From: a virus
Virus record (IMG/VR): IMGVR_UViG_3300033552_000004
Span: 1-64,000 of that record
DNA: 64,000 nucleotides
Strand: one strand, 5' to 3'
Shown here: positions 41,497-44,133 of the stretch, in pieces
How the letters are laid out: each line of letters begins with the position of its first letter
How positions within the stretch are numbered: position 1 is the stretch's first letter
Program-made: the position numbers and the translations under genes
Notes under the pieces: model-generated
Databases searched by the model: none
Told to the model about the DNA's origin: nothing
The model's input: only the letters and a program-made list of their open reading frames with translations

Positions 41497-41897
41497 AGTT
41501 GTTTGCCGAGGGCAAGGATGGCGGCTTAGATTCAAACGTCACAGGCTATTGGCTGATTGAGTGGAAGTCGCTATTCTCAATAGCCCTGTTAAAATTTGAC
41601 AGAGGCAGTCGAGAAGCATTCCACTCTCACGCTTTTAACAGTGTCTCATGGGTGCTGGCTGGAAAACTCTTAGAGCACAGAGTCTACGACGCCGCTGGGA
41701 GTTTGACGCAATTCAGACCTGGCCTCAAGCCGATTATCACGACACGGAACAACCTTCACAAGGTAATCGGACTCGCTGATAGGACTTGGGTGCTTACGTT
41801 CAGAGGCCCGTGGAAAAAGACATGGCAAGAAAAGTTTGACGATGGGGCGGAGGTAACTCTTACCCACGGAAGAAATATTGTTGAAAGGAATAAATGA
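41493..41897 (+). CDS. Cupin-fold protein
   Basis: Start ATG 41493 (ATGA overlap), 134 aa. The central REAFHSHAFNSVSWVLAGKLLEHR matches the first cupin motif (HxH spaced to a Gly), and HKVIGLADRTWVLTFRGP resembles the second. It could bind a metal and modify a small molecule or act as a dioxygenase-type enzyme; the substrate is unknown. It precedes nrdA, so a role in nucleotide metabolism is possible but unproven. Confidence 0.78.
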   Translation: MKLFAEGKDGGLDSNVTGYWLIEWKSLFSIALLKFDRGSREAFHSHAFNSVSWVLAGKLLEHRVYDAAGSLTQFRPGLKPIITTRNNLHKVIGLADRTWVLTFRGPWKKTWQEKFDDGAEVTLTHGRNIVERNK

Positions 41898-43237
41898 TAT
41901 CAAAAATTAAAAAACGAGACGGTACGCTGGTTGACTTCGATGCTGAGAAACTAAATAAGTGGGCTGATTGGTCTGCTGGTATAGGTGTGGAGTGGGGCAC
42001 TGTAGCGCTAGGCGCTTGTCGCAAGTGCTTTGATGGATGTACAACTGACGACTTGCACAATGCCTTGATTGCGGAGTGCGTTGACCGTGAGACTACTGCA
42101 CATCTACGCATGGCTGGAAGGCTTTTTATTGGTCAGGTGTACAAACGGGCCTTCGGAGACTGGAGAGAGATTCCTAGCGTGCTGGAGATGTACAGAAGCA
42201 TGGTTGCAATGGGTTTGTGGGAGATGATGGATTACTCTGACGAAGAGCTAGCCATGTGTGATGGATTTATCAATCACCAGCTGGACATGGATGCGACACT
42301 GACGGAGTCCAAGCAGATCGTTGACAAGTATGCCATTGTTGACCGGGTAGACAAGAAGGTGTTTGAGTCTCCGCAGTTTGTGTACATGCGTATGGCCTTG
42401 GGCAATATGAAAGACATGCCGCGTGAGCGGAGAATGAAGGACGTCGAGGCACTCTACTACGGCTACAGCCGGAAATTGATTAACCCGCCAACCCCGTTCT
42501 CGATTAACTTGGGCACACCAAAGCGACAGTATGCGTCTTGTTGTGTTGTTACAACAAAGGATACGGCTGCAAGTATTGCTGCGGCAGATCACATCGCTTA
42601 CATGATGACTTGTGCATCAGCAGGCATTGGTATGCATTTGAAGACCCGCAGCAAGGGTGACAAGGTGCGTGGGGGCGCTATTCAGCACCAAGGCAAGCTG
42701 CCCTACTACAAAGTGCAGCAAGCGGTTGTAGCGGCCAATTTGCAGAGCAGCCGGGGCGGGGCGAATACGATGCACTTTAATGTGCTAGACCCTGAGCTAA
42801 TGGACTTGCTGAAGCTGAAGAATGTGCAGACGGTGACAGACAAGCGAATTAAGGACATTGATTATTCCTGGGGCAGCAATGCGCTGTTCGCGCAAAAGGT
42901 GGCTAGGAACGAAGATTGGATGCTGGTGAGCTATGGCGATGCGCCAGAGTTGTACGAGGCGATGTACAAGGCCGACCAGTCTGAGTTTGATCGGCTGTAT
43001 GCCGAGGTGGAAGATGACGATGGTATTCCGAAGCAAACTATTCCCTCACGGGCGATTGCCATTGAGGCGTTGAAAGAGGGGTATGAAACTGGACGGATGT
43101 ATATGCACTTCACGGACGAGATGAATCGACACACTCCGTTTAAGGATACGATATATTCATCAAACCTGTGCCAGGAAATTGGATTGCCAACGGCAGGGTA
43201 CGACTCTGTTGCAGATTTATACAAGGAGCAAGAATGA
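41894..43237 (+). CDS. nrdA: Ribonucleotide reductase large subunit, N-terminal part
   Basis: This 447-aa product covers the ATP-cone (KIKKRDGTLVDFDAEKL) and the first part of the catalytic barrel. It includes the cysteine of YASCCVV (redox Cys, about 216) and the catalytic NLCQE (N424, C426 as thiyl radical, E428). The frame ends at a TGA that overlaps the ATG of the next gene. In intact class I NrdA, the sequence would continue with the GEIGLC segment containing the second redox cysteine, which here begins the next protein. No intron or homing gene lies at the break. It makes dNDPs with NrdB. Confidence 0.92.
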   Translation: MISKIKKRDGTLVDFDAEKLNKWADWSAGIGVEWGTVALGACRKCFDGCTTDDLHNALIAECVDRETTAHLRMAGRLFIGQVYKRAFGDWREIPSVLEMYRSMVAMGLWEMMDYSDEELAMCDGFINHQLDMDATLTESKQIVDKYAIVDRVDKKVFESPQFVYMRMALGNMKDMPRERRMKDVEALYYGYSRKLINPPTPFSINLGTPKRQYASCCVVTTKDTAASIAAADHIAYMMTCASAGIGMHLKTRSKGDKVRGGAIQHQGKLPYYKVQQAVVAANLQSSRGGANTMHFNVLDPELMDLLKLKNVQTVTDKRIKDIDYSWGSNALFAQKVARNEDWMLVSYGDAPELYEAMYKADQSEFDRLYAEVEDDDGIPKQTIPSRAIAIEALKEGYETGRMYMHFTDEMNRHTPFKDTIYSSNLCQEIGLPTAGYDSVADLYKEQE

Positions 43238-44133
43238 GTGGTGAAATTGGGCTTTGCAGCCTTGCAGCAATTGCAGCGAACGTGCCAGATGACAAATATG
43301 AGCAAGTAGCCTACTACACGCTCTTGTCAATTGACAATGTTATTGATATAATGGATTACCCATTTCCGCAATTAAAACACACCGCGCAAGCGCGGCGTAG
43401 CACAGGGGTCGGCATTACCAACTTGGCGTATGACATGGCCGTTCGCGGCTTGAAATACACTTCGCTGGAAGGCAAGCAGCACATTCACCGGCTTGCCGAA
43501 AGGCACAGCTACTGGCTGCACAAGGCATCGTTGAGGCTTGCCAAGGAGCGTGGGAACGCTCCTTGGATACACAAGACCAAGTATGTTGACGGCTGGTTGC
43601 CAATTGACACGGCTAACAAGGAGATTGACAAGGTTGTGCAACAGCCTTTGATGTTCGACTGGGAAGCGTTGAGGGCAGAGATTAAGGAGCAGGGAGGGAT
43701 AAGGAACAGTGTGCTTGAGGCTGTCATGCCGTGCGAAAGCAGCAGCATTGCCTCATACCACACCAACGGCCCATACCCAATCCGCGACTTGAAGGTCATT
43801 AAGACCAGTGGCAACAACAAGAACTTGTTCCTTGCACCTGAAATGGAGAAGCTGAAAGGTGCTTACCAGTTGGCCTGGGACATTCCTACGAAGGATATGG
43901 TTGAGGTGTATGCTATCATCCAGAAGTTCACGGGGCAGGCAATCAGTGCCGACTTTTACATCAAGTATGATAGTGACAACCGTCAGGTCGGGACGAAGCA
44001 GATGTTGCAGGACTTCCTACTAATGAGAAAACTGGGCATGAAGAGCCGGTACTACATCAACAGTCGCACAAGGGCTGAGGCTGAAGTGCCGTACGAAGAA
44101 GAGGCACCCGACTGCGACAGTTGTAGTCTGTAA
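43234..44133 (+). CDS. nrdA: Ribonucleotide reductase large subunit, C-terminal part
   Basis: The start ATG 43234 overlaps the stop of the N-terminal gene (ATGA) and has aaggag five bases upstream, so it can be translated independently. The 299-aa product carries Cys8 (GEIGLCSLAAIA, second redox Cys), YYTLLSIDN, the MPCESSSIASYHTNGPYP region, the RYYINSR radical-transfer tyrosines and a terminal CDSC (C294, C297). Together with 41894-43237 it covers a complete class I large subunit. It must associate with the N-terminal half to work. Confidence 0.92.
   Translation: MSGEIGLCSLAAIAANVPDDKYEQVAYYTLLSIDNVIDIMDYPFPQLKHTAQARRSTGVGITNLAYDMAVRGLKYTSLEGKQHIHRLAERHSYWLHKASLRLAKERGNAPWIHKTKYVDGWLPIDTANKEIDKVVQQPLMFDWEALRAEIKEQGGIRNSVLEAVMPCESSSIASYHTNGPYPIRDLKVIKTSGNNKNLFLAPEMEKLKGAYQLAWDIPTKDMVEVYAIIQKFTGQAISADFYIKYDSDNRQVGTKQMLQDFLLMRKLGMKSRYYINSRTRAEAEVPYEEEAPDCDSCSL

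What the first reader, a model, noticed from the sequence alone, without database searches (positions are those of the whole stretch)
41894..44133. Class I NrdA encoded as two overlapping genes with redox cysteines on different polypeptides
The N-terminal gene ends at TGA overlapping the ATG of the second gene (ATGA), which has its own Shine-Dalgarno. N424/C426/E428 and the first redox Cys are on one chain; the second redox Cys (Cys8), the radical-transfer tyrosines and the C-terminal CxxC are on the other. A split NrdA linked to a homing endonuclease insertion is known from Aeromonas phage Aeh1, but here no insertion is at the break. It could be a relic of endonuclease loss.
Basis: partly seen in the sequence, partly recalled or inferred. 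Interest (0 to 1): 0.8.

Follow-up and report, generated by a model that had tools for sequence, protein, structure and literature searches.

The report
Phage ribonucleotide reductase gene split in two
In this phage and one related phage the large subunit of the DNA-building-block enzyme ribonucleotide reductase is made as two separate proteins, cut inside its active site with nothing inserted at the cut, so the working enzyme must assemble itself from two pieces.

Summary
A class Ia nrdA is encoded as two genes, 41894-43237 and 43234-44133, overlapping by ATGA. C216, N424, C426 and E428 (E. coli C225, N437, C439, E441) lie on the first chain. C8 (C462), Y273/Y274 (Y730/Y731) and the C-terminal CxxC lie on the second. 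nrdB and a glutaredoxin gene follow.

A single-base sequencing error is very unlikely. A sibling contig (L008) has the same fission with different local sequence (TAAGGATG) and the same 5-nt SD-ATG spacing. Synonymous sites between the two are near saturation (pS 0.72-0.80), yet the proteins remain 86-90% identical, so both halves are under strong purifying selection.

Syntenic relatives (79-80% identical) have one intact gene, so fission is the derived state. Among 134 distinct viral nrdA loci, only these two show it.

The 'relic of endonuclease loss' idea is not supported. In relatives, inteins and group I introns sit at the C426 codon, about 21 codons upstream. L008 still has an intein there.

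Aeromonas phage Aeh1 is broken in the same loop, but by mobE and with terminal tails; here there is no insert and no tail. Best reading: a functional, tail-less, two-chain NrdA made by translational coupling and self-assembly. New variant of a known kind.

The parts
41894..43237 (+). nrdA-N: N-terminal chain of the class Ia RNR large subunit (447 aa; C216 codon 42539-42541, C426 codon 43169-43171)
43234..44133 (+). nrdA-C: C-terminal chain (299 aa; C8 codon 43255-43257, Y273/Y274 codons 44050-44055, CxxC codons 44113-44124)
43223..43228 (+). AAGGAG Shine-Dalgarno of nrdA-C, 5 nt before its ATG; same motif and spacing in L008 (4978-4983)
43234..43237 (+). ATGA stop/start overlap joining the two genes
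44173..45261 (+). nrdB, class Ia small subunit (E-x-x-H-x-x-x-Y motif present)
45565..45777 (+). glutaredoxin, likely reductant of the RNR

Best explanation
A naturally fissioned, functional class Ia NrdA. The two genes are translated in sequence from one mRNA, the second by its own SD and by stop-start coupling at ATGA. The chains fold together without a covalent link into one alpha subunit, broken in the loop between the strand carrying C426 and the strand carrying C8' (E. coli residues 454-456). Two such alpha subunits with NrdB form the holoenzyme. The radical passes from the second chain (Y273'-Y274') to the first (C426). Turnover forms a C216-C8' disulfide between the chains, which the C-terminal CxxC and glutaredoxin then reduce. 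The break most likely arose by a small indel in a length-variable, poorly conserved loop where a start site appeared. Shown: gene structure, residue distribution, conservation in a sibling, purifying selection, derived state. Inferred: co-translation, assembly, activity, inter-chain disulfide, indel origin.
For: Same fission in L008 with independent stop/SD/ATG. pN/pS about 0.09-0.15 on both halves and NrdB with pS 0.72-0.80 between window and L008. No branch acceleration relative to intact relatives. All catalytic, redox and radical-transfer residues kept. nrdB and grx intact. The break lies in one of the least conserved windows of intact NrdAs (lowest 6%), at the largest internal insertion in the alignment, and in coil between modelled elements. 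Other relatives carry about 50-66 aa in-frame inserts there. Aeh1 is broken in the same loop and is reported functional as (alpha-a + alpha-b)2 beta2 (PMC2988022, PMC3267527). Intact syntenic relatives place the split as derived.
Against: No biochemistry and no reads. Aeh1 halves carry tails that, from my memory of Crona et al. 2011 (not held here), are essential for assembly; these chains have none. Only two contigs show the split. The window+L008 clade has moderate support (0.92-0.97 FastTree, 91 bootstrap) and is unresolved on the N half alone. Translational coupling is inferred from sequence only.
Confidence: 0.8

Rival explanations
1. Programmed -1 ribosomal frameshifting joins the two frames into a full-length NrdA; the second start is incidental.
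For: In both the window and L008 the second gene lies in the -1 frame of the first, and an SD-like AAGGAG sits at the junction.
Against: No X XXY YYZ slippery heptamer in the overlap of either sequence. No unusual RNA structure at the junction (z = 0.25 and 0.88). The SD is placed 5 nt before an ATG in both, which fits initiation. In L008 the ATG is the only start codon between the previous in-frame stop and the conserved region.
Confidence: 0.06
2. Sequencing or assembly error: a one-base indel breaks an intact nrdA.
For: Single metagenomic contig; the loop is one base off a single frame relative to 15-nt loops in L021/L022.
Against: A sibling contig is broken at the same place with a different sequence, a TAA stop and a separate ATG.
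Confidence: 0.03
3. A true but dead gene: nrdA is decaying and the phage relies on host RNR.
For: Fission cuts through the active site.
Against: Strong purifying selection on both halves after near-saturation of synonymous sites; invariant residues kept on both chains; nrdB and grx kept; no rate increase.
Confidence: 0.05
4. The break is the scar of a lost homing endonuclease, intein or intron, perhaps through misrepair near the C426 homing site.
For: Homing elements are common in this gene: group I introns and inteins at the C426 codon in relatives; L008 has a LAGLIDADG intein there. In Aeh1, mobE lies in the same loop as this fission.
Against: Elements in relatives sit about 21 codons upstream of the break. 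No residual sequence at the junction; the loop is as short as in intact relatives. No intein, LAGLIDADG or intron match in the record.
Confidence: 0.12
5. The two chains are rejoined by a split intein (trans-splicing).
For: A split-intein arrangement with a GIY-YIG-like ORF exists in more distant nrdA loci L370/L372/L376.
Against: No intein sequence on either chain end in the window; the chains stop and start within the normal loop.
Confidence: 0.01

Closest known systems
Aeromonas phage Aeh1 nrdA-A / mobE / nrdA-B (AY266303; Friedrich et al. 2007, cited in PMC2988022 and PMC5374615)
   Same: Class Ia NrdA split in the same loop; same division of catalytic and redox residues; nrdB follows.
   Different: Aeh1 has a 714-nt mobE gene between the halves, and about 25-30 residue tails on both chains. 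The window has an overlap, no insert and no tails. Aeh1 NrdA-A is only 29% identical, so this is very probably an independent event.
Thermus phage phiYS40 nrdJ-a/nrdJ-b (described in PMC3653736)
   Same: Phage RNR catalytic subunit encoded by two consecutive ORFs with almost nothing between (12 nt).
   Different: Class II (B12-dependent) enzyme.
gamma-proteobacterial class II NrdJa/NrdJb, e.g. Pseudomonas aeruginosa (described in PMC3267527)
   Same: RNR catalytic subunit stably split into two polypeptides.
   Different: Class II, cellular; break position not compared here.
Split-intein 'fractured' genes (L376-type nrdA here)
   Same: NrdA encoded in two ORFs near the active-site Cys.
   Different: Chains rejoined by protein trans-splicing; no intein in the window.

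Membership tests
Class Ia RNR large subunit (NrdA) | RNR all-alpha and barrel domains | tested here: met
   PF00317 and PF02867 on chain 1, rest of PF02867 on chain 2, all above cut-off
Class Ia RNR large subunit (NrdA) | Catalytic C439/N437/E441, redox pair C225/C462, Y730/Y731, C-terminal Cys pair | tested here: met
   Alignment to E. coli NrdA and relatives; the C-terminal pair is outside the phmmer alignment and is read from the relatives alignment
Class Ia RNR large subunit (NrdA) | NrdB partner with diiron/tyrosyl motif encoded nearby | tested here: met
   PF00268 above cut-off; best NCBIfam model is the class Ia beta subunit, below its cut-off
Class Ia RNR large subunit (NrdA) | One continuous polypeptide | tested here: not met
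   Two ORFs in window and in L008
Aeh1-type split NrdA | Break in the C439-C462 loop, catalytic residues on two chains | tested here: met
Aeh1-type split NrdA | mobE or other homing endonuclease between the halves | tested here: not met
   Genes overlap by 4 nt
Aeh1-type split NrdA | Terminal interaction tails on both chains | tested here: not met
   Chain ends lie within the normal loop length
Aeh1-type split NrdA | Reconstituted RNR activity | not testable with these tools
   needs biochemistry
Intein-split gene | Intein halves at the chain ends | tested here: not met

The most novel reading that the evidence does not exclude
A class Ia NrdA that works as two non-covalent chains without any tails or linker, arisen without an inserted mobile element and independently of Aeh1, in which the redox disulfide and the radical hop cross between polypeptides. 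It would show that the assembly tails of Aeh1 are not a general requirement and that this active-site loop is a natural fission point.
Probability: 0.7. Interest if true: 0.6.

Novelty: new variant of a known kind. Interest (0 to 1): 0.52.

Why it matters
Splitting an essential enzyme through its active site is normally thought to need splicing or acquired interaction domains. A second NrdA fission in the same loop, without an insert or tails, gives a clean natural test of how a fragmented radical enzyme assembles. It also shows that fission of this gene can persist without a mobile element at the break.

Tried and rejected
Sequencing error: rejected because of L008. Frameshift signal: no slippery heptamer and no RNA structure. 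Intron or intein at the break: none. Pattern scans for SD-ATG before GEI(G/A)LC in viral contigs returned only L008 as a split, and in genome contigs returned ten class I nrdA loci, none split. The key Aeh1 papers (PMC1851037, PMC3045599) are not held. Apparent in-frame inserts at residue 442 in L191, L327 and L343 turned out to be inteins at C426 followed by the usual loop.

Full report
What is there. The window is most of a 66.4 kb virus record. Two ORFs at 41894-43237 and 43234-44133 together make one class Ia RNR large subunit. Pfam splits one barrel model between them (PF02867 positions 1-220 and 225-523). By alignment to E. coli NrdA, chain 1 covers residues 7-454 and chain 2 covers 456-740. 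Chain 1 has C216 (C225), N424 (N437), C426 (C439) and E428 (E441). Chain 2 has C8 (C462), Y273/Y274 (Y730/Y731) and the C-terminal CxxC. nrdB (44173-45261) and a glutaredoxin (45565-45777) follow. The second gene starts at the ATG of an ATGA overlap with AAGGAG 5 nt upstream.

It is not a base-calling error. Contig IMGVR_UViG_3300033552_000073 (L008) encodes the nearest relative found: 86% aa identity on the N half (excluding its intein), 91% on the C half. It is broken at the same place, but as ...TACAAGGAG TAA GG ATG AACGAAAAAGAAATTGGC, so with another stop, another N-terminus and the same 5-nt SD spacing. Intact relatives read through the same loop in one frame and lack the SD+ATG.

It is derived, rare and maintained. 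Syntenic phages L021 and L022 (79-80% identical; same HNH - phosphoesterase - TS-like - cupin - nrdA - nrdB - grx order) have one continuous nrdA. On a tree of concatenated halves, window and L008 group together (0.97 FastTree; 91 bootstrap) inside intact relatives. The N half alone does not resolve this, and NrdB identities to the window (86% for L022, 84% for L008) hint at recombination, so a single origin is likely but not proven. Among 134 distinct viral nrdA loci, 113 are one frame without a large insert, 11 carry in-frame inserts, 9 carry an out-of-frame or stop-containing insert (including L008), and the window alone is split with no insert anywhere. L008 and the window are the only two broken at this loop. 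Between window and L008, synonymous sites are near saturation (pS 0.72-0.80) while pN is 0.065-0.118, similar on both halves and NrdB, and there is no rate increase relative to intact relatives. The split gene therefore looks functional in both lineages.

Where the cut lies. In 19 intact NrdAs the loop 436-449 is among the least conserved windows (lowest 6%) and takes the largest internal insertion, flanked by invariant N424, C426, E428 and G450, E451, C455. The AlphaFold model of intact L021 (pLDDT 88.5; best PDB match E. coli class Ia alpha, TM 0.92) puts it in coil between a short helix (439-443) and the strand 457-461. In the model of the isolated C half, residues 1-6, just before C8', have pLDDT below 50, as expected if that segment needs chain 1. 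More distant relatives carry about 50-66 extra residues in frame in this same loop (L015, L025, L179, L188).

Mobile elements. This gene family is a frequent target, but at another site. Group I introns lie at the C426 codon in L011, L012 and L024. Inteins lie at the same codon in L008, L026, L180, L191, L327 and L343. L008 carries both: an intein at C426 and the naked fission about 21 codons later. The window record has none of these. So 'relic of endonuclease loss' is not supported; a small indel in a permissive loop plus a start site is the simpler origin.

Comparison with Aeh1. I read the Aeh1 locus directly. NrdA-A and NrdA-B are broken in the same loop, but separated by mobE and extended by terminal tails. 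Held reviews state that the Aeh1 enzyme is fully functional (PMC2988022) as (alpha-a + alpha-b)2 beta2 (PMC3267527). That the tails are essential is my memory of Crona et al. 2011, not read here. Naked fission of other RNR genes is known (phiYS40 nrdJ with a 12-nt gap, phiAS4 nrdD; PMC3653736). I found no report of it for class I NrdA, but most subscription papers were not searchable.

Mechanism. Inferred: termination-reinitiation at ATGA with a good SD gives both chains from one mRNA; they assemble without a covalent link; the radical crosses from Y273'-Y274' on chain 2 to C426 on chain 1; turnover makes an inter-chain C216-C8' disulfide, later reduced through the C-terminal CxxC and glutaredoxin. 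No slippery heptamer or structure suggests frameshifting.

Noticed in passing
L008:3952-4923: Intein with LAGLIDADG motif at the active-site Cys codon (NL|C426) of the sibling's split nrdA-N; it ends in Gln (GILTGQ|C) where Asn is usual.
   Followed up: partly
L376:3457-4730 (also L370, L372): nrdA interrupted at C426 by what looks like a split intein: N-intein ORF ending in a stop, a GIY-YIG-like ORF, then a C-intein ORF starting MGIKIEYLNREED and ending VHN|C. A 'fractured gene' arrangement.
   Followed up: partly
L015, L025, L179, L188 (fission loop): In-frame inserts of about 50-66 aa in the very loop that is broken here and in Aeh1; the Aeh1 tails occupy the same position, so they may derive from such an insert.
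   Followed up: partly
L011:4662-4876, L012:4654-4904, L024:7088-7299: Group I introns at the C426 codon of nrdA.
   Followed up: partly
L024:5814-6620: Second interruption of nrdA at residue ~269 carrying an HNH-like ORF; not called by Rfam at gathering threshold.
   Followed up: no
L160:7242-8210: Insertion of ~970 nt in nrdB at codon 117.
   Followed up: no
L025:7035-8531: About 1.5 kb insertion in the C-terminal part of nrdA, near window chain-2 residues 156-169.
   Followed up: no
L008:65-805: Intein-like sequence (WLAGMYDGEG; GHHN|C) in an upstream gene of the sibling phage, perhaps the phosphoesterase.
   Followed up: no
window 38607-39146: HNH endonuclease gene (phrog_1985) 3 kb upstream of nrdA, conserved at the same place in L021 and L022.
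   Followed up: partly
window 41358-41897: Cysteine-dioxygenase/cupin-like gene overlapping the start of nrdA by ATGA.
   Followed up: no
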